Source of the DNA: a virus
DNA: 30,709 nt
IMG/VR virus record: IMGVR_UViG_3300027320_000038
Coordinates: 1-30,709 of that record
Direction: 5' to 3' (one strand)
Shown here: positions 20,824-30,709 of the stretch, in pieces
How the letters are laid out: every line of letters starts with the position of its first letter
How positions within the stretch are numbered: the stretch's first letter is position 1
Notes under the pieces: model-generated
The model's input: the letters and a program-made list of their open reading frames with translations, nothing else
Told to the model about the DNA's origin: nothing
The model's database searches: none
Translations under genes and position numbers: made by a program

Positions 20824-23800
20824 ATGCCAAGATATAAAGTAAACGAAAAAACTTATAATTTACCTGAGGATAAAGTCGAAGGGTTTTTGCTACAATTTCC
20901 AGATGCCATAGCTATTGAAGACGAAGCACAGGATTTTCCAACAAGCACTCCAGCGGATGCGGATGCAGTGCAGCAACCAATGACAGCATCACAAGCAGGT
21001 TTTACGGAATCACCCTCGGTAGATACTCCTTCGGAATCACTAGATCCTGAGCCTAAAAGCAAAAAATTAATTGAGCTAGAACAAAAATTAGAAAAAGCAA
21101 AGACTTTTAAAACAACAATGAAAGGTCAAATAATTGCAGATCTAAATGATGAAATTGAAATTGAAAAAAATTTAGCTACACCTGAGGGTAAACAAATAGC
21201 TAATGACTTTAATTCTTCTGTTGATGCTATCTTTAATACAAACATTCCTTACCAACTAGAGGAAGGGGTAGTTTTTAAAGATCCTATTGAAGGACAAAGC
21301 ATGACGGAGTTAAATAAAAATCCTGAATGGAGAAATGCTTTAACAAATAAAATTACAGATAGTTACTATAGACTAAACCCTAGCAAGCCTGCTCCTGCAG
21401 AAAGTACTATAAACACTCTTGTAAACGCAAGAATAGACGCTGAACTACAAAAAGAAAAACAAGAAATAGATGCAGAAAGAAGCAATGTAATTCAAGACCT
21501 GCGTGATAATAAAAGATACACAGCTACAGTGGAGTTAGGTGTAAAAGACTACTCAGAAAGTCTTTCACCTCAACAAAAGAATATAGCTGATATGAATTCT
21601 CGCGCAAAAAAGCTAAGAGATATAAAAGATAACGGTACCGCTTTGGAAGCAGCTAAAGCTTCGGAGGAGCTAAATAAATTATCTAAAGAAGCTAATGATG
21701 CTTTAAAAGATTACAATAAAAACTTTCAGTACTGGGTTGATCCTATTACAGGAAACAACATGTCTTTGTCTCAAAAGGAAAAAGATATGCTTACTAATCA
21801 ATCACAACCTAAAAGTTTAAAAAAAGAAATAGACGCTAAAACCGCTCAATACAAAAAATCAACTGCTGCTCAACTTGAGGAAGCATTTGTTTTAAATGTA
21901 TTAGAAACACAAGACAATGCTAAAAGGAAAAATCGTATTGTAAAATTAAAATCATCATTTTTTCCATTAATAAATATTTTATCAGGTAAAGGATATAAAC
22001 CTAATGAAGAAGGAATATATGAAGTAAAATTTCAAGATTTATTACCTCTTAGAAATATAACAGACATAGACAAAGAATTAAGTAAAGCAACTACTTTAGG
22101 GTCAAAAGAAGAAACGCTCGGGCAAGGAGGAATGAAAGATATGCTCGATGATTTATATAAAGATAATATAAGATTAAATATAAACAAAGAAGCTTTAACT
22201 ACTACATTTATGCTTAACATAGATCCAGGTAGTATTAAATCAACCATAGGTAATAAGGTTGGAGATAAAATAGGTGAATTTGTAGGAGCATTAAGTACAG
22301 CTACGTTAGGAGAGGATTTAACTAAAAGTATAGGTACAACTCGAAGAATGGAATTAGATGCGATAGAGGAGCTTCAAACGGACTACGGTATAGACATGTC
22401 TAAATCCCAGCGAGAAAATTACAGAAGATCATTATCTACTCAAGTAGCGGAAGGCTTAGGAGGATTTGTTCCTGAAATTGTTAAGTTTGGAATGTTAAAT
22501 GCTGTTACAGGGGGTACTTTATCTGCTACCAAGTTCGGAGCTAAAATGGCTAAATGGCTTAAGCGTACCAAAAACTTTACCCCTACTAGGCAGCAACAAA
22601 CTCAAAGTTTTATTTACCATGCTCTTTTAGAAGAAGCTAAATTTAAAGCAGTAACAGGTGGCGAATCACAAACAGGTGGCGGAGTTGGTTTTTTTGCAGG
22701 TGGTCAATTAGCAAATAAACTATTAAGCAAGTTTAAATTCAGTGGAAAATCTCAAGTTCTTGAACCTGTTTTTCAAAAAATGATTGCTCCAGGCGTTGGA
22801 GGTATGGTTGGTAGTAATGCAGCTTTAATCACAGAGGAGGCTATTAAGTCATTGTCAAATAATGTTGATTGGAAAAAGTTTATGCATGAAACTTACGGCA
22901 ACGTTTATTATGATAAAACAACAGGAACTTTACTTTCCGAAGAAGAGGTTGAAAAAAGAAAGAAAAGCGGTGATGGAAATACAATGGAAGACCGTAGTAA
23001 AGGCTTTGAAAAAGGAATTGTAGAGATTTTTATGTTTGCTGCTCCAGGGGCTACAAAATTAAAGCCAATAGATTTCATGAGCGTCGCTAAAAAAAGAGCA
23101 AACTTTTCAGATGCTGTTAGGTTATTAGATGAAACAAACACAGATGGTGAATTTAAATTAAAAGGCCAGGAAAGAACTCAAAAGGAAAACTATGCTTTAG
23201 AATTAGAAAATAGTTTACTAAGAGCTGATAATTCGTTTTATAACAAAGAGGTAAGCGAATTGACTAAAGAAATAAATAGAGCTAGATCTAAAATTGATGA
23301 AGGTAATATTTCAAATAGAGAAAAAAGAATTTTAGAAAAAGAAATCATTGTTGCTGAGTCAAAGATTGAAATGACCAAAGCTGGTATTAAAAAATCTTTT
23401 AATAATATAAAAAAATCAGGAGTTTTTCAATCTAAAGGTAAAACACCTGTATTAAAAATAATAAGAAACGAAAAAGAACCTAATGCTTTAGATGGTGATA
23501 AGGCTCGATATTTTCCTGAATCAAATGAATTCCAAGTTGATTTATCAAAATATAAGCCAGGTGTTTTTACTCAAGAAGTAGGACATGCTCTAATGGATTT
23601 AGCTTTTAAAAACAACGAAAGCGCTGCAAAGAAATTTAAAGAAAGCATTGAAACAACAGTAAATAAAGCTTTAGAAGGAGAGCGTTTTGGTAATTTAAGA
23701 GATATGACTTTTCAAGAAATTATTAATGAAAAGTATTCAGATAAAAAACAAAGACCTGAAGAGTATGTAATGAATATTGCAGAATTTTTACAAAATCCTA

Positions 23801-26800
23801 AATTTAAAGATTTACTTTTAAGTAAAGGTTTATTAACTGGAATAAACAGAACAGTTAAAGAAACTGCGGGTAAATTTGGTATTGATTTATCTTCTAAAAA
23901 ACCTTTAGAGCTTGGTGAAAAAAATATAAACAGAGCAAGCGATCTTTTAGAATTTTTATATGATCTTGGTAATATAGAAAAAGGTGGTAAAAATATTTCT
24001 AAACAATTTGAAAGATTTTCTAATGTAGAAATTGATGGTAAAAAATTAATAGATTTAGAAACAGGTATTGAAATTAAAACAGAAGCAGAAAGACTTAAAG
24101 ATTTTTCTTCTAAAGAACTAGAAAGTGATAATAAAGATATATTCAGCAAGGTAAACAAAGCTTATAAAGAAGGTATTGAAAACAATCAAAACATAGAAAC
24201 AACTGGTGTAATGATTGGGTTTGAATATAGACCTATTGTCTTAAAAAAAATAAGAAGATATATAGATAAAAATAATTTACAAGTAGCCAGCGATGTACCT
24301 GAATTACTCGCGGACGCTGTAATTATGGATAAAAATGGTGTTCCTGGAATAGTAAAAAGTTACTCTGACGGTCAGAAAGTTATTAAATATATTAAAGAAA
24401 ATAATCCAAGCAAACAAGAAATTCAAGATTTTGCTAAAGAAAACGGTATACGTGAAATAAGAAGCCAAGAAGGAGCATCTAGATTAGATAAACTTGAAGC
24501 AATGGCTAAAGGAACCAAATCGGAAGCTACTTTGACATCAATGATCACTGGTGATGTAGACAAACGTATATTAGGTATTATGCAGAAACCTGAATATGCA
24601 CAAGAATTTGGAGCAGTTAGATTAGGTGGGTTAGAAGAAAATCAACAAGAAAAAATAGTTCAAGAGTCTACTACAGGAGAAGGTAGTACCGCTTTCTTAG
24701 ATTTAGCTAAAAACGATAGAGTTTCAAGAAAAACCGCTATAGCAGTATCTAGGCTGCCCGAAGAAATTAATAAAAAAGCAACCGACATAGCTGAAAAAAC
24801 ATTATTACAAAAATTTCCTAAGCTAGGTGCTAGAACTTTAGGTAAAGTTAAGCTTAAGTCAGGTGAAGAAGTTACTTACGCATTATTTAGAAATACTGCC
24901 GATGTAAACATTGGAGGAGAAACTTTTAACATTAAAGCTAGAGGTTTTAAAGAAATAAACGATTACTTAACCAGTAAAGGTTTATCTGCTGAAGGCAAGC
25001 CTAGTAAGCTTAAAAACTTTAATCAGTTCCAACAAGAAGCTTTTAAGGTAAGTTTATTTAACGAAATAGAAAAAGTAGCGGGTAAACTTAAAGGAGGTGG
25101 TAAAGTACCAACGCCTGAATATAACATGTTCCTGGATAATACGTTTAAATTATACAAGAATTATATAAGCCAGTCTAGTATAAATAAAAGATTTAATATA
25201 TTTTCAGAACCATTAATAGATTCTAAAACAGGTAAACAAGTAAGAGAATCTTCTGATCAAGGTAATCCTGTATTTAAGAAAAAAAATATAACACCTGCGG
25301 AATGGAAAAAATATTTTGGAGGAGATGGCACAGGTACTGAAAGACTAGATGGTAAAAGAAGATCTCTTATAGAGACTATATCTATGGAAATAGGTAAAGA
25401 TGCTATAATGGAAAAATTAGAATCTGACACGTTTAAAAAAATTGTACAAGAAAGACAAACCGAATTAGGCAACGAAGTAGGTGAAAACTTTATATCAAAA
25501 ATTTCTGTTGAACTAGACAGGTTGCCTTCAGGGGAAATGTCTAAATCTTATTCTTCCGTAGAGCTATTTCATAGGGCTAAAAAAATACCTGGGTTAGCTA
25601 TTAAAAATGAAAATGAATTTAGAACTTTAATAAACCAGTATAATAGAGGTGAATTAGATAAAGATCTCATGGAGCTCATTAAAGAAGAGGCTACAGAATC
25701 TTTTATTAATACAACTAAAGCTAGAAGTTTAATAGCTGAAAATATTAAAAAAGCTATTGGACAAGAAATTTTAAAATCTGAAACAGATATTAATATAAGG
25801 TATAATGAAAAAATAGGACACAATAATAAGCTACATAAAGAATTTAGAGATGAAGTTAAATCAACATTAGAGTTGATACCTAAGGAAATTTTAGAATTGC
25901 AAAAAACATTATCAGGCGAAAAAGGTTTTATTATTGCTGAAACATTAGGGTATGACGGCGGTATGGGAAAAACTGGAAAACAATTTATAAAAGATTTTAA
26001 TAATATTTTAGGAACCAAAGCTGATAATTCTATATGGAAACCTGTTTTTGATTTAATAAAAAAGAATAAACAAAAGTTTTTTGCAGAAATTTCAGGAGGC
26101 TCTAATAAAACAGGTGTTGGACAAGCTAGAGCAATTGTTAAAAATAATGAATTATCTAACGCTGAAAAAATTAAGGAATTAGATAACGTATATGAAGGAG
26201 GATTAAAATATTCAAATGAATTAAATACTGCTTATCACAACGCTATTGTAAAAAGTTTAAATAAAAGTTTAAATACTAAGTATAAAGGTAAACCTTCTGA
26301 AAGAATAAAAGCTGTAGAAAGACTATCGCTTATGATAGCTCAAAATAGAAAATTTGGACCTAGGCTTGCGTCTCCATTTACTATATTTGAATTAAACACA
26401 AAAGGTGGTTTTTCTAATGAGCATTTAAAAGAGTCTGTAAAATATAAATCAGATTTAATAAATTTACTAAAAAAAGGATTGTTTGATATTGATGGTGAAT
26501 TAAAAAAAATAAATACTGGATATGAAAGCGCTCTTGTAGACAATACTTCCAGAACTGCTGCTGACAAGGCTTTAGGTAGTGTGTTTTCTTCAGAAATGAA
26601 ATCTTATTTAAAACTTATTGGGCCGGATGCTTTAGTATTTACTGCTCCGGAAATAGCTAATAAATTAAATAAGTTTTATCACGCTCCTTCTAAAAAGTTA
26701 TTAGGTGATCACATAGTTGAAAAATTTATAAAAGAAGCTGCTTTACCTAATAAAACAAATTTAAATTTATTAAAAAATAAAGGAATAAACGTTAAAAACA

Positions 26801-28986
26801 TCAAAACAAATTTAGGCGCTTTAATTGAAATGGATAAAATTGATGTTAGTCAAGCAGCATTTTCTTCAAAAGATTTAAATTCTAGCAACTTAAGCAAAAC
26901 TTTTAATAGAATAATAGAAGGTAAGACTGGTATAAAAGCTAGTGATGTGTATAGCAAAAGTAGAGGTATTAAATCCGGTAAAGGTAAAGGTAGACTAGAT
27001 ATAATACCACCGTCTGCTGAGGACTTTGTAGGATTACTTTATAAAACTTTAGGTAAAGGAAAAGAAGGTGATGCTCAAATGGCTTGGTATAAGAAAAATT
27101 TAATAGATCCCTTTGCTAGAGGCGACGAAGCTATTACTAATGAAAGAAACGCTTTGATGCGAGACTTTAAGCAGGTTAAAAAAGAAATTGTAGAAAGCAT
27201 TGGCGGAACAGATTTTAAGGGGGTATCTCCTTTAACAAAAAAGCTAAAGGCTAATATAGGTGATCAAGTTTATACAGGTGAAGATGCTGTTAGAATGTAT
27301 ATATGGAAAAAGCAAGGTATGGAAATACCTAATATAGATAAAGCTGAAGTAGACGCAGCGGTAGCTGAAGTTGCTAAAGATCCTATGCTAGCAGATTTTG
27401 CAAACAAAATTAGAACAATAAATAGGGGTAGACTATATACAGCTCCAGAGAATCAATGGGTTGCTGGTAACATTGCTACTGATTTTTTATCAGGTATAAA
27501 CACAGAAGGTAGAGCTAAGTATCTAAAAGAGTGGCAAGCTAATGTAGATGCAGTATTTTCTAAAGAAAATATGAATAAGTTAGAAGGAGCTTTTGGTACT
27601 AACTATAGAAAAGCTATGGAGAACATGCTGAAAAGAATGAGAACCGGTAAGAACAGAGACGTGAATAAAGATAAATTAGGTGGCAGGGTTACTGATTGGA
27701 TTAATAATTCTACAGGAGCTATTATGTTTTTTAATCAAAGATCTGCAGTACTTCAGTTAATGTCGGCTACTAACTTTGTTAACATGTCAGATAATAATAT
27801 ATTTAGTGCGGGTAAAGCATTTGCAAATCAACCTCAATACTGGAAAGACTTTAAAATGTTATTTAATTCAGAATACCTTAAAAACAGAAGAGGAGGTCTT
27901 GAATTTAACGTTACTGAATCTGAAATTGCAGATATAGCTAAGCAAGGCGGTGTTAGTGGTTTGATTTCTAAAATATTAAAAGTAGGATTTACCCCAACAC
28001 AGATAGCAGATAGTTTTGCTATTGCTGCAGGTGGATCTACATTCTTTAGAAATAGATATAAAACCTATTTAAAAGAAACTAATGCTGAAGGCGAAAAAGT
28101 TTACACTGAAAAAGAAGCTAAAGAGAAAGCATTTTTAGATTTTAAAGAGACAGCTGAAGAATCACAGCAATCAAGCAGACCAGATAAAATTAGTCAACAA
28201 CAAGCTAGCGACTTAGGTAGACTTATATTATCTTTTGCTAATACACCTAGTCAGTACGCTAGAATAATTAAAAAAGCTACACTGGATCTTAAAGATGGTA
28301 GAGGAGATGCTAAAAGTAATATATCTAAAATAGCTTACTATTCTTTTTTAACAAACTTAGTCTTCAACGGTATGCAGAAAGCTTTATTTGCTGAAGCAAT
28401 GGGAGATGACGACGAAGAACCACGTAATGCTGCCGAAAGGAAAGCAAAAGAAAAAAGACAATCTAAATATATAGATGTAGCTAACGGTATGATAAGTTCA
28501 TACTTAAGAGGTACAGGCGTTAGAGGTAATGTCTTGAGTACACTTAAAGATATGGGTCTTGAAATATATAAACAGCAAGGTAAAACTGTTCAAGATTATG
28601 ACAGGGTTGCAGATGCTGCATTAGGATTTTCACCACCTATAAGATATAAGTATATACAAATGAAAAGTGCTGGACGAAAGTTTACTTTCCCAGGCAGTAG
28701 AAAAGAAGTAAAAGAAAAACTTTTAGATATAGATAGTCCTGCTTTGATGGCAGGTGCTCAGTATACATCAGCACTTACGAACATTCCTCTTGATAGAGCT
28801 CTTAAAAAAATAAACAATATAGTATTAGCCAGTAACAGTGAGCTTGATGAAATCCAAAGGATAGGATTAATTTTAGGTTGGTCTACATATGATTTGAATA
28901 TACCTAAAAAAGGTGGAGCTAAAAAGAAAAAGAAAGGTAAGAAAAATTTTAAAACGACAAAATTTAAAACGACAAAATTTAAATGA
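20824..28986 (+). CDS. Giant internal virion/cargo protein with degenerate zincin-like motif
   Basis: 2,720 residues, by far the largest gene here. The N-terminus (MPRYKVNEKTYNLPEDKVEG) resembles the opening of other phage ejected proteins. Residues about 480-676 include Gly/Ala-rich hydrophobic stretches that could insert in membranes. Residues 917-921 read QEVGH inside a metallopeptidase-like setting (VFTQEVGHALMD, then RPEEYVMNIAEF at 977-988), a HExxH motif with the first His replaced by Gln. Long charged helices fill 1000-2250. The last 450 residues (for example SAVLQLMSATNFVNMSDNNI and FANTPSQYARIIKKA) look like a domain I recall as widespread in marine phages. The C-terminus is Lys-rich, ending in a repeated KTTKF. 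It is probably packaged in the head and ejected. No polymerase DxDxD motif or lysozyme motif was found. Confidence 0.6.
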   Translation: MPRYKVNEKTYNLPEDKVEGFLLQFPDAIAIEDEAQDFPTSTPADADAVQQPMTASQAGFTESPSVDTPSESLDPEPKSKKLIELEQKLEKAKTFKTTMKGQIIADLNDEIEIEKNLATPEGKQIANDFNSSVDAIFNTNIPYQLEEGVVFKDPIEGQSMTELNKNPEWRNALTNKITDSYYRLNPSKPAPAESTINTLVNARIDAELQKEKQEIDAERSNVIQDLRDNKRYTATVELGVKDYSESLSPQQKNIADMNSRAKKLRDIKDNGTALEAAKASEELNKLSKEANDALKDYNKNFQYWVDPITGNNMSLSQKEKDMLTNQSQPKSLKKEIDAKTAQYKKSTAAQLEEAFVLNVLETQDNAKRKNRIVKLKSSFFPLINILSGKGYKPNEEGIYEVKFQDLLPLRNITDIDKELSKATTLGSKEETLGQGGMKDMLDDLYKDNIRLNINKEALTTTFMLNIDPGSIKSTIGNKVGDKIGEFVGALSTATLGEDLTKSIGTTRRMELDAIEELQTDYGIDMSKSQRENYRRSLSTQVAEGLGGFVPEIVKFGMLNAVTGGTLSATKFGAKMAKWLKRTKNFTPTRQQQTQSFIYHALLEEAKFKAVTGGESQTGGGVGFFAGGQLANKLLSKFKFSGKSQVLEPVFQKMIAPGVGGMVGSNAALITEEAIKSLSNNVDWKKFMHETYGNVYYDKTTGTLLSEEEVEKRKKSGDGNTMEDRSKGFEKGIVEIFMFAAPGATKLKPIDFMSVAKKRANFSDAVRLLDETNTDGEFKLKGQERTQKENYALELENSLLRADNSFYNKEVSELTKEINRARSKIDEGNISNREKRILEKEIIVAESKIEMTKAGIKKSFNNIKKSGVFQSKGKTPVLKIIRNEKEPNALDGDKARYFPESNEFQVDLSKYKPGVFTQEVGHALMDLAFKNNESAAKKFKESIETTVNKALEGERFGNLRDMTFQEIINEKYSDKKQRPEEYVMNIAEFLQNPKFKDLLLSKGLLTGINRTVKETAGKFGIDLSSKKPLELGEKNINRASDLLEFLYDLGNIEKGGKNISKQFERFSNVEIDGKKLIDLETGIEIKTEAERLKDFSSKELESDNKDIFSKVNKAYKEGIENNQNIETTGVMIGFEYRPIVLKKIRRYIDKNNLQVASDVPELLADAVIMDKNGVPGIVKSYSDGQKVIKYIKENNPSKQEIQDFAKENGIREIRSQEGASRLDKLEAMAKGTKSEATLTSMITGDVDKRILGIMQKPEYAQEFGAVRLGGLEENQQEKIVQESTTGEGSTAFLDLAKNDRVSRKTAIAVSRLPEEINKKATDIAEKTLLQKFPKLGARTLGKVKLKSGEEVTYALFRNTADVNIGGETFNIKARGFKEINDYLTSKGLSAEGKPSKLKNFNQFQQEAFKVSLFNEIEKVAGKLKGGGKVPTPEYNMFLDNTFKLYKNYISQSSINKRFNIFSEPLIDSKTGKQVRESSDQGNPVFKKKNITPAEWKKYFGGDGTGTERLDGKRRSLIETISMEIGKDAIMEKLESDTFKKIVQERQTELGNEVGENFISKISVELDRLPSGEMSKSYSSVELFHRAKKIPGLAIKNENEFRTLINQYNRGELDKDLMELIKEEATESFINTTKARSLIAENIKKAIGQEILKSETDINIRYNEKIGHNNKLHKEFRDEVKSTLELIPKEILELQKTLSGEKGFIIAETLGYDGGMGKTGKQFIKDFNNILGTKADNSIWKPVFDLIKKNKQKFFAEISGGSNKTGVGQARAIVKNNELSNAEKIKELDNVYEGGLKYSNELNTAYHNAIVKSLNKSLNTKYKGKPSERIKAVERLSLMIAQNRKFGPRLASPFTIFELNTKGGFSNEHLKESVKYKSDLINLLKKGLFDIDGELKKINTGYESALVDNTSRTAADKALGSVFSSEMKSYLKLIGPDALVFTAPEIANKLNKFYHAPSKKLLGDHIVEKFIKEAALPNKTNLNLLKNKGINVKNIKTNLGALIEMDKIDVSQAAFSSKDLNSSNLSKTFNRIIEGKTGIKASDVYSKSRGIKSGKGKGRLDIIPPSAEDFVGLLYKTLGKGKEGDAQMAWYKKNLIDPFARGDEAITNERNALMRDFKQVKKEIVESIGGTDFKGVSPLTKKLKANIGDQVYTGEDAVRMYIWKKQGMEIPNIDKAEVDAAVAEVAKDPMLADFANKIRTINRGRLYTAPENQWVAGNIATDFLSGINTEGRAKYLKEWQANVDAVFSKENMNKLEGAFGTNYRKAMENMLKRMRTGKNRDVNKDKLGGRVTDWINNSTGAIMFFNQRSAVLQLMSATNFVNMSDNNIFSAGKAFANQPQYWKDFKMLFNSEYLKNRRGGLEFNVTESEIADIAKQGGVSGLISKILKVGFTPTQIADSFAIAAGGSTFFRNRYKTYLKETNAEGEKVYTEKEAKEKAFLDFKETAEESQQSSRPDKISQQQASDLGRLILSFANTPSQYARIIKKATLDLKDGRGDAKSNISKIAYYSFLTNLVFNGMQKALFAEAMGDDDEEPRNAAERKAKEKRQSKYIDVANGMISSYLRGTGVRGNVLSTLKDMGLEIYKQQGKTVQDYDRVADAALGFSPPIRYKYIQMKSAGRKFTFPGSRKEVKEKLLDIDSPALMAGAQYTSALTNIPLDRALKKINNIVLASNSELDEIQRIGLILGWSTYDLNIPKKGGAKKKKKGKKNFKTTKFKTTKFK
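28951..28980 (+). repeat. 15-bp tandem repeat at the end of the giant gene
   Basis: Two exact copies of AAAACGACAAAATTT (28951-28965 and 28966-28980) encode the repeated KTTKF at the C-terminus, just before the overlapping TGA. Confidence 0.95.
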
Positions 28987-29342
28987 AATTAAAATATTTT
29001 ACATACGAAGAGTTTGACTCACCTGATGTTCAGGGTAGTGGTCAATTAATGAATGAGGAACTACTTAACATGCTTGACATTGTTAGAAAAAAGTACGGTA
29101 AATCTATTGTTATTAACTCAGGTTATAGAACTGTAAAACATAATGCTAAAGTAGGTGGAACTTCTGAATCATCTCATACAAAAGGTTTAGCGGTTGATAT
29201 TGCATGTAATAATTCTACTGACAGATTTAAATTAGCAGGTATATTAAGAGAAGTTGGATTTAAAAGAATTGGCATTGCTAAGACTTTTATTCACGCTGAT
29301 ATAGACAAAGATAAAGCGCAAAACGTATTATGGACTTATTAA
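28983..29342 (+). CDS. M15-family D-Ala-D-Ala-type peptidase, candidate endolysin
   Basis: 119 residues, the size of a single-domain Peptidase_M15_3 protein, a zinc enzyme that cuts peptide cross-links in peptidoglycan. The expected ligands are visible: H65 and D72 in SSHTKGLAVDI and H104 in FIHADID; the conserved GYRT lies at 47-50. There is no signal peptide, so release for host lysis would need a holin, which was not found here; a virion-associated role is possible. The ATG overlaps the stop of the giant gene (ATGA), so the two are probably translationally coupled. Confidence 0.85.
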   Translation: MKLKYFTYEEFDSPDVQGSGQLMNEELLNMLDIVRKKYGKSIVINSGYRTVKHNAKVGGTSESSHTKGLAVDIACNNSTDRFKLAGILREVGFKRIGIAKTFIHADIDKDKAQNVLWTY

Positions 29343-29907: not shown

Positions 29908-30709
29908 TTAGCCATCACAAGCTAAACAATCTTCACTCATAGCTTGCTGAGCTATATCTCCACGTAAAACAGATTCTGTTCTAGTATAATATAAGGTTTT
30001 AACACCTTTCTTCCAAGCTTCAAAATGAACTTTGTTCAACCACTTAGGTGTAGCTTCAGATGGAAAAGCTAGGTTTAAACTAACGGACTGATCTACGTAT
30101 TGTTGCCTAAGACCAGCTTGATTAACTAATTCTAATTGATTAATCTCTTTAAAAGTTTTAAAAACTTCTTTAACTGGAATGTTATGGCCCATAGTAATAT
30201 TATCCAAAGCATCGATATCCTGTATGCTACCTCCGTCAGCCAGTATTTTATTCCACGTTTCATTTGTATTTAGTTTATGTTTCTTTAATAGTTTAACTAG
30301 CGTCGGGTTTTTCCTAATGAAAGTCCCCTTTGCACTCTGCTCTGTAAAAACATTCGCAGCCCACGGCTCAACACCAGGAGAAACATTACCGCTAAGCTTG
30401 CTATTAGAAACAGTAGGAGCAATAGCACGGAGATGAGTATTACGCATACCCGTCCCAACACACCATAAAGGCTCGCCGTAAATTTCTGCCAAGTCTCTCG
30501 AGGCTCTTTCACTTTCAATTTTAATTTGCGAAAATATTTTCCTAGTTTCAAACTGAGATAGTAAACCCTCGAAAGGAATACCTTTTTCTTGGAGATAGGT
30601 GTGCCATCCGAGTACACCAAGTCCCAATGCTCTCCCTTTCTGCGCAGACCGAACAGCATTTTCAAACCCGCGAAGTCCCTTGGCTCTTTGAATAAATTCC
30701 TCCATAACT
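29908..30709 (-). CDS. nrdA: Class I ribonucleotide reductase, large (alpha) subunit, C-terminal part
   Basis: The frame is open to the right edge; the M at 30705 is internal and the gene's 5' part is outside the window. The visible 266 residues match the C-terminal part of class I alpha subunits, which reduce ribonucleotides to deoxyribonucleotides: GRALGLGVLGWHTYLQ, SPGVEPWAANVF, the radical-path tyrosines in LYYTRTE (Y239-Y240 counted from that M) and the redox tail EDCLACDG with its CxxC pair. Everything needed at the C-terminus is intact. A small subunit would be expected upstream or nearby outside the window. Bases 30301-30480 and 30601-30660 are far richer in GC (48-55%) than the 3' part (18-42%). 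Confidence 0.95.
   Translation of the reverse strand, partial: VMEEFIQRAKGLRGFENAVRSAQKGRALGLGVLGWHTYLQEKGIPFEGLLSQFETRKIFSQIKIESERASRDLAEIYGEPLWCVGTGMRNTHLRAIAPTVSNSKLSGNVSPGVEPWAANVFTEQSAKGTFIRKNPTLVKLLKKHKLNTNETWNKILADGGSIQDIDALDNITMGHNIPVKEVFKTFKEINQLELVNQAGLRQQYVDQSVSLNLAFPSEATPKWLNKVHFEAWKKGVKTLYYTRTESVLRGDIAQQAMSEDCLACDG

What the first reader, a model, noticed from the sequence alone, without database searches (positions are those of the whole stretch)
23563..23796. Zincin-like site in the giant protein with His replaced by Gln
VFTQEVGHALMD followed about 58 residues later by RPEEYVMNIAEF looks like HExxH plus a downstream Glu. Q917 is encoded by CAA, one base from His. Either the peptidase was lost and the domain became structural, or a nonstandard ligand is used.
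Basis: partly seen in the sequence, partly recalled or inferred. Interest (0 to 1): 0.5.

Follow-up and report, generated by a model that had tools for sequence, protein, structure and literature searches.

The report
Phage zincin with altered metal ligand
A giant protein of a marine phage carries a protease-like domain in which one of the three metal-binding residues has been swapped, and related phages show a second kind of swap with matching changes around it, which suggests the site is still in use rather than dead.

Summary
Q917 (CAA, 23572-23574) stands where relatives carry the first His of HExxH; E918, H921 and the downstream Glu, E980, are intact. A profile built only from HExxH relatives finds the window's domain (E = 6e-6, filters off); models show a zincin-like core. 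Of 113 distinct domains, position 917 is His in 95, Glu in 12, Gln in 6; E918, H921 and E980 are in all 113. A last scan added two Gln-types and one Glu-type. The Gln-type domain is under purifying selection, stronger than its flanks. Residue 987, seven after E980, follows the ligand: Asp/Glu with His (90/95), Glu with Gln (6/6), Asn with Glu (12/12, at least two lineages). That fits an oxygen ligand in place of His with the second-shell hydrogen bond kept, though the contact is inferred. I favour an altered-ligand metal site, probably still a peptidase; a metal-free pseudo-peptidase is a serious rival. QExxH (Volvox VMP3, copper) and EExxH (ZIP8, manganese) are known elsewhere; I found no description of a His/Gln/Glu series in one phage family (searches, open-licence papers only).

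The parts
20824..28986 (+). Giant virion-type protein, 2720 aa, that holds the domain
   Evidence: a giant gene lies at the same place, at the end of the structural block, in MW202828 and Elemovirus, where it is annotated 'structural protein' in the latter
23302..24021 (+). Zincin-like domain, residues 827-1066 as aligned and modelled
   Evidence: HMM match, alignment A7, model
23551..23553 (+). Y910, seven residues before ligand 1: Tyr in 6/6 Gln-type, 11/12 Glu-type, 0/95 His-type
   Evidence: of three later members L299 (Gln) has Phe, L300 (Glu) and L301 (Gln) have Tyr
23572..23574 (+). Q917 (CAA), in the place of the first His of HExxH
23575..23577 (+). E918, catalytic-base position
   Evidence: 113/113 distinct domains
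23584..23586 (+). H921, second His of the motif
   Evidence: 113/113 distinct domains
23761..23763 (+). E980, third-ligand Glu on the downstream helix
   Evidence: 113/113; 86/86 in A7
23770..23772 (+). M983 (E980+3), second-shell position; Thr/Asn in 84/95 His-type, Met in 6/6 Gln-type, Ala in 9/12 Glu-type
23782..23784 (+). E987 (E980+7), second-shell position; acidic in 90/95 His-type, Glu in 6/6 Gln-type, Asn in 12/12 Glu-type
26776..28983 (+). Conserved C-terminal module of the giant protein, used to collect relatives
   Evidence: 46-52% identity in 21 of 22 loci (the other is the near relative at 95%); 48-49% to L196 and L244

Best explanation
The domain is a zincin-like (gluzincin-type) metallopeptidase domain inside a giant virion/ejection protein of a marine podovirus related to phages of Flavobacteriia. 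In its lineage the first metal ligand is Gln instead of His. The site is kept, not decaying: Gln (or, in sister lineages, Glu) most likely binds the metal through a side-chain oxygen, together with H921 and E980, and E918 remains the base. The residue at E980+7 holds ligand 1 by a hydrogen bond whose direction fits each type: His N-H or Gln NH2 gives to Asp/Glu; Glu oxygen receives from Asn. The domain then probably cleaves the giant protein itself or a partner during packaging or ejection, perhaps with a metal other than zinc. Shown: homology, intact other residues, purifying selection, covariation. Inferred: the 917-987 contact, metal binding, metal identity, catalysis, substrate.
For: Homology and site: the H-only HMM finds the window (E 6.4e-6), other Gln-types (2.8e-7 to 3e-5) and Glu-types (3.8e-9 to 4.9e-15). 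Census: position 917 His 95, Glu 12, Gln 6 of 113; E918, H921, E980 113/113. The scans aimed at Gln- and Glu-types used peptides that do not include E918/H921 (patterns), so their retention there is not made by the search pattern. Selection: domain dN/dS in Gln pairs 0.053, 0.085, 0.111, 0.070 against 0.121, 0.179, 0.439, 0.483 for the whole gene; Glu pairs 0.078, 0.053, 0.036; His pairs 0.041-0.171 plus one uninformative pair at 1.0. Covariation: residue 987 Asn in 12/12 Glu-type, acidic in 90/95 His-type, Glu in 6/6 Gln-type. L244, a Glu-type with Asn987 and Ala983, is sister to the Gln clade (100/99) and far from the other Glu-types; starred branches force at least two changes of Glu. L300, next to L244, has Glu917 with Ala983 and Asn987, read in two frames. 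Over residues 978-989 L244 and L116 differ only at 983 and 987. Of 173 columns, 987 is the best match after 917 itself between the two Glu lineages; 983 is sixth. Precedents: Volvox VMP3, QEXXH, prefers Cu (PMC7717551, passages); in ZIP8/ZIP14 EEXXH is tied to Mn transport (PMC10457451, passage).
Against: No metal or activity data. Only two supported independent Glu events (three on the best tree); the paired test cannot reach significance with so few. L229 and L249 are His-type with Asn987, L118 has Gln there and the distant L005 and L006 Gly, so the rule is not absolute. Three other columns (1005, 902, 1006) also separate the Glu-types. The window's own model is middling (pLDDT 69.8, pTM 0.66) and no fold match is strong. 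The HMM was built from HExxH domains, so domains that lost the motif altogether may be missed; giants L121, L123 and L166 have no detectable domain. Purifying selection would also be seen in a structural pseudo-enzyme. No other His and no Cys lies in residues 827-1066 of the window protein.
Confidence: 0.5

Rival explanations
1. Pseudo-peptidase: the metal was lost when His became Gln or Glu, and the domain was kept as a scaffold or binding module of the giant protein. The changes at 983 and 987 then repack a metal-free core.
For: Loss of a zinc ligand usually abolishes zincin activity (general knowledge). PMC3650047, section 6 read, says that about half of the HExxH domains surveyed have members with substituted motifs, first His to Glu being about twofold over-represented, with roles of such proteins not well understood. 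The fold neighbours include the N-terminal region of anthrax lethal factor, which I recall as a metal-free zincin fold.
Against: E918 and H921 have no clear reason to stay fixed in such a scaffold, yet the 8 Gln-types and 13 Glu-types seen keep them. Substitution at ligand 1 is limited to Gln and Glu, both able to bind metals; no other residue was seen there among 113.
Confidence: 0.35
2. Metal-binding but not catalytic: the altered site holds a metal for stability or for ejection-linked refolding, without peptidase activity.
For: Same site conservation as for the best explanation; oxygen ligands suit Mn, Ca or Fe (general knowledge).
Against: E918, which is not a metal ligand in zincins, is present in 113/113.
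Confidence: 0.1
3. The link between ligand 1 and residue 987 is inheritance, not compensation: a few ancestral sequences happened to carry both. (This concerns one argument and can be true together with any of the other readings.)
For: Two supported independent events only; many other columns of the larger Glu group also differ by descent.
Against: The same pair arose in two distant lineages, and 987 is the top column of 173 after 917; it is otherwise acidic in 90 of 95 His-types.
Confidence: 0.15

Closest known systems
Zincin-like MPTase domains of phage polyvalent proteins (Iyer et al. 2017, PMC5512222; passages seen)
   Same: Metallopeptidase fold inside a very large phage protein near virion genes; helix with motif, second helix with Glu; unified there with lethal factor endopeptidase, as in the fold lists here
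   Different: That paper describes HEXXH and HEXXXH; the passages seen mention no Gln or Glu in place of the first His, and the paper is not among those that hold QEXXH or EEXXH together with 'phage' (search 114). No other domain above a curated cut-off was found in the window's giant protein
Volvox VMP3, QEXXHXXGXXH (PMC7717551, passages; I recall gametolysin M11 as its family)
   Same: Gln in place of the first His; reported active and favouring copper
   Different: Third ligand is a His in HXXGXXH; here it is a distant Glu. Eukaryotic extracellular-matrix enzyme of another family
ZIP8/ZIP14 transporters, EEXXH (PMC10457451, passage)
   Same: Glu in place of the first His of HEXXH; the motif is critical for Mn transport
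   Different: Membrane transporter, not a peptidase; no homology claimed
Peptidase_M78 (ImmA/IrrE) and SprT-like Pfam families
   Same: 14 and 10 of 87 domain members match at E<=1 (best 1.9e-7 and 0.0078); IrrE and a protease of DNA-protein crosslink repair (6mdw) appear in the fold lists
   Different: The window's own domain has no Pfam match at E<=1
Substituted HExxH families surveyed by Lenart et al. 2013 (PMC3650047; section 6 and passages read)
   Same: First His replaced in otherwise conserved zincin families; first His to Glu noted as frequent in M2
   Different: The parts read report no paired change of a second-shell residue and no phage virion family

Membership tests
Polyvalent-protein zincin-like MPTase | HEXXH (or HEXXXH) on the active-site helix | tested here: not met
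   Window has QEVGH; first His present in 95 of 113 relatives, counting HEMVGH of L106
Polyvalent-protein zincin-like MPTase | Glu on the second conserved helix | tested here: met
   E980, 113/113; in predicted helix 152-162 of the model
Polyvalent-protein zincin-like MPTase | N-terminal helix, three strands, then two helices | tested here: met
   By prediction only: helix 5-39, strands 50-54, 68-71, 76-80, helices 88-102 ... 152-162; the better His-type model has helix 7-22, strands 28-33, 60-64, 71-76, motif helix from 88, Glu helix 145-162
Polyvalent-protein zincin-like MPTase | Fused to other effector domains in one polypeptide | tested here: inconclusive
   No other Pfam or PHROG family above cut-off or at a convincing E-value in the window protein; DUF3293 in the Elemovirus giant
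Zincin metallopeptidase (functional) | Binds a metal and cleaves peptides | not testable with these tools
   No biochemical data
VMP3/gametolysin kind (QEXXHXXGXXH) | HXXGXXH third ligand directly after the motif | tested here: not met
   Window reads QEVGHALMDLAFK
Peptidase_M78 / SprT-like | Pfam profile match | tested here: not met
   Window domain 0 families at E<=1; some relatives match
Podovirus of the Flavobacterium/Cellulophaga phage kind with crassvirus-like tail | Muzzle C-terminal domain, P22-like portal, TerL similarity | tested here: met
   crAss_MUZ_C 2.9e-10, P22_portal 8.4e-8; TerL 64% to MW202828, 46% to Elemovirus, 36-39% to Cellulophaga phages. Membership of the order Crassvirales itself was not tested

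The most novel reading that the evidence does not exclude
One phage virion peptidase family has evolved a natural series of first metal ligands, His, Gln and Glu, each with its own matched second shell, and uses them to work with different metals (for example zinc, copper, manganese or iron) in different waters or hosts.
Probability: 0.2. Interest if true: 0.75.

Novelty: new variant of a known kind. Interest (0 to 1): 0.5.

Why it matters
Zincins with a changed HExxH are commonly taken as inactive. Here one family offers His-, Gln- and Glu-type members whose other catalytic residues are intact and whose second-shell residue changes with the ligand. That makes a sharp test possible: do Gln and Glu types still bind metal, which one, and do they cleave? 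It would also tell whether giant phage ejection proteins need an active protease. A search for papers with two of QEXXH, EEXXH and 'phage' found one, on Volvox (search 114, open-licence papers only).

Tried and rejected
Tried, little or nothing gained: tblastn of the giant protein against 50,697 phage records gave no match at E<=0.01. PDB sequence search with the domain alignment: one chance row, E 1.2. Foldseek against PDB: no match at E<=0.001 for either model; the first rows are lethal factor chains at E 0.66 and 0.41 with probability 0.47 and 0.63. VIA-align: best Z 5.9 and 6.6, upper rows zincin-like, lower rows mixed with unrelated folds, all under the level that the tool calls clear. 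BFVD: best row 1.4e-3; an Elemovirus structural protein is fifth. BLASTP of the window giant against those of L005 and L006: no significant zincin alignment; the one in register scored E 1.1. HMMER's default filters hid the Gln-types. The Elemovirus isolation paper PMC7077304 (passages) gave nothing on virion proteins.

Rejected: sequencing error at Q917 (CAA in the 7 other Gln-types read). Loss with drift (dN/dS). A rule 'Tyr at -7 whenever ligand 1 is not His': 17 of 18, but L244 has Leu and L299 Phe; left as a note. A single origin of the Glu type: contradicted by L244 (0% of 200 bootstrap trees); inside the larger Glu group one or two origins are unresolved (12% of bootstraps with one; AU p 0.017 on a longer region, where the flanks recombine and the group was chosen after seeing the data). 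The tree of the C-terminal module scrambles the labels, so halves of the giant gene recombine; I used domain trees instead. With L299 and L301 added, Gln is one clade in 79% of bootstraps, against 98% before.

In some searches and 73 sites were picked by [HQE]E..H, so E918 and H921 were invariant by construction there; searches used the HMM alone. L209 matched over 54 residues only and has no domain hit. The 107-row tree left out L005, L006, L200, L291, L292 and L293. Of 89 C-terminal rows, six giants had no domain hit, three of them cut at the contig end.

Full report
What was claimed and whether it is there. The giant ORF (20824-28986, 2720 aa) holds VFTQEVGHALMD from V914 and RPEEYVMNIAEF from R977. 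Q917 is CAA. The window is a 30.7 kb virus record with TerL, P22-like portal, a capsid-type virion protein, a protein with the crassvirus muzzle C-terminal domain, then the giant gene, an endolysin gene and part of a ribonucleotide reductase gene on the other strand. Its TerL is 64% identical to MW202828 and 46% to Elemovirus phages of Flavobacterium. Both have a still larger protein at the end of the structural block (3859 and 3694 aa by their annotated spans), annotated as structural in Elemovirus.

Is it a zincin-like domain? Relatives were found through the conserved C-terminal module and through the domain itself. Of the 17 complete giants in the first set of 22 loci, 13 had HExxH at the matching place, one QEVGH, two EELFH and one (L106) no HExxH. 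An HMM from 66 His-type domains, without Gln- or Glu-types, then found the window's domain (E 6.4e-6), the divergent Gln-types, the Glu-types, the Elemovirus protein (1.9e-9) and MW202828 (1.5e-5) among 907 ORFs, with filters off. Some members match Peptidase_M78 (14 of 87 at E<=1, best 1.9e-7) and PHROG 87 metallo-protease (7 of 87, best 5.9e-7). The window model has the expected order of elements, with the motif on helix 88-102 and E980 on helix 152-162 (pLDDT 69.8). A His-type relative, L136, folds with pLDDT 91.4 and pTM 0.90. The upper fold neighbours of both are zincins (lethal factor, Certhrax, PPEP, IrrE, 6mdw), at Z 6.6 or less and mixed with unrelated rows further down, so the fold is supported but not by a strong single match.

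How odd is the Gln? Of 113 distinct domains from 192 loci, position 917 is His in 95, Glu in 12 and Gln in 6, while E918, H921 and E980 are present in all 113. By 70% clusters: 77 His, 7 Glu, 2 Gln. The last scan added Gln-types L299 (QEIGH) and L301 (QEFGH) and Glu-type L300 (EEVFH). Besides the window, Gln is in eight contigs (L002, L003, L004, L195, L196, L197, L299, L301). Gln-types form one clade (98% of bootstraps; 79% with L299 and L301 added) that spans domains only about 38% identical. One giant, L106, has HEMVGH, the HEXXXH form already described for polyvalent proteins. Giants L121, L123 and L166 lack a detectable domain.

Is it decaying? No. In Gln-type pairs the domain has dN/dS 0.053-0.111, below the whole gene and both flanks in each pair (whole gene 0.121-0.483), and in the range of informative His-type pairs (0.041-0.171) (15 pairs run, of which one was identical and one, L178/L179, uninformative at 1.0). 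The motif and PEEYVMN stretches are among the best conserved of the Gln clade.

Second-shell covariation. On the helix that carries E980, residue 987 (E980+7) is acidic in 90 of 95 His-types, Glu in 6 of 6 Gln-types and Asn in 12 of 12 Glu-types; residue 983 (E980+3) is Thr or Asn in 84 of 95 His-types, Met in 6 of 6 Gln-types and Ala in 9 of 12 Glu-types. The added L299 and L301 also read PEEYVMNVVEFL. L244, a Glu-type, is the sister of the Gln clade (100/99), so Glu with Asn987 arose at least twice. Between L244 and the Gln-type L116, residues 978-989 differ only at 983 and 987, and L300 repeats Ala983/Asn987 in another reading frame of a frameshifted contig. In a control over 173 columns, 987 ranks first after 917 itself for agreement between the two Glu lineages; 1005, 902 and 1006 come next and 983 is sixth. 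Exceptions are L229 and L249 (His with Asn987), L118 (Gln987) and the two distant phages L005 and L006 (Gly), where the match is weakest. The number of independent events (two supported, three on the best tree) is too small for a paired test.

How it most likely works. Gln and Glu can offer an oxygen ligand. If 987 touches 917, the pairs His-Asp/Glu, Gln-Glu and Glu-Asn each keep one hydrogen bond in the right direction and a pair charge of -1. I recall that thermolysin uses an Asp four residues after its Glu ligand to hold the first His; here the spacing would be seven, and the contact is inferred. This pattern is expected if ligand 1 still holds a metal and not obviously if the site were empty. 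Known cases show that such swaps can be functional with a changed metal: QEXXH in Volvox VMP3 favours copper (passages of PMC7717551), and EEXXH in ZIP8/ZIP14 is tied to Mn transport (passage of PMC10457451). Function in the phage follows by analogy: Iyer et al. propose that such domains process their own giant protein before packaging, in the head or after injection, or act on host proteins (passages of PMC5512222), and crassviruses store and eject large cargo proteins (passages of PMC10172136).

Rivals. A metal-free pseudo-peptidase remains possible; substituted HExxH motifs are common and their roles not well understood (PMC3650047 section 6). Against it stand the unbroken E918 and H921 and the restriction of ligand 1 to His, Gln and Glu in the sample. 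A metal-binding, non-catalytic site cannot be told apart from an active one by sequence, save that E918 is conserved.

Novelty. A search for two of QEXXH, EEXXH and 'phage' gave one paper, on Volvox (search 114); QEXXH with metalloproteinase gave four, on MMP8 and Volvox (search 36); two of EEXXH, QEXXH and 'metal' gave eight, none on phages by title (search 76). Only open-licence papers are held, so this is weak evidence of absence. I call it a new variant of a known kind: known domain, known single swaps elsewhere, but a His/Gln/Glu series with a matched second shell inside one phage virion family that I did not find described.

Noticed in passing
L106, giant ORF about residues 980-1151: The domain has HEMVGH, one residue longer than HExxH, as in the HEXXXH set of polyvalent proteins.
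   Followed up: partly
L005 (MW202828.1 741-12320, minus): Giant protein of 3859 aa with two HEFGH motifs, annotated as 'reticulocyte binding/rhoptry protein', which looks like a spurious label.
   Followed up: no
giant genes of the rows: The tree of the C-terminal module does not follow the ligand types of the domain: halves of the giant gene seem to recombine between phages.
   Followed up: partly
window 23551-23553 and relatives: Tyr seven residues before ligand 1 in 17 of 18 Gln/Glu-types and 0 of 95 His-types; L244 (Leu) and the later L299 (Phe) are exceptions.
   Followed up: partly
L229, L249: His-type domains with Asn at the +7 position, against the rule.
   Followed up: no
L300: Reading frame changes between the motif and the Glu helix in this contig; assembly error or real frameshift unknown.
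   Followed up: partly
window 28983-29342 (+) and 29908-30708 (-): Endolysin gene directly after the giant gene, then part of a ribonucleotide reductase large-subunit gene on the other strand.
   Followed up: no
L288-L294 (genome contigs): Giant-protein relatives on contigs binned as Flavobacteriaceae, Flavobacteriales, Aliivibrio and Woesearchaeota MAGs; probably phage contigs, partly misbinned.
   Followed up: no
L006 giant protein residues 1323-1392: DUF3293 domain in the Elemovirus giant protein.
   Followed up: no
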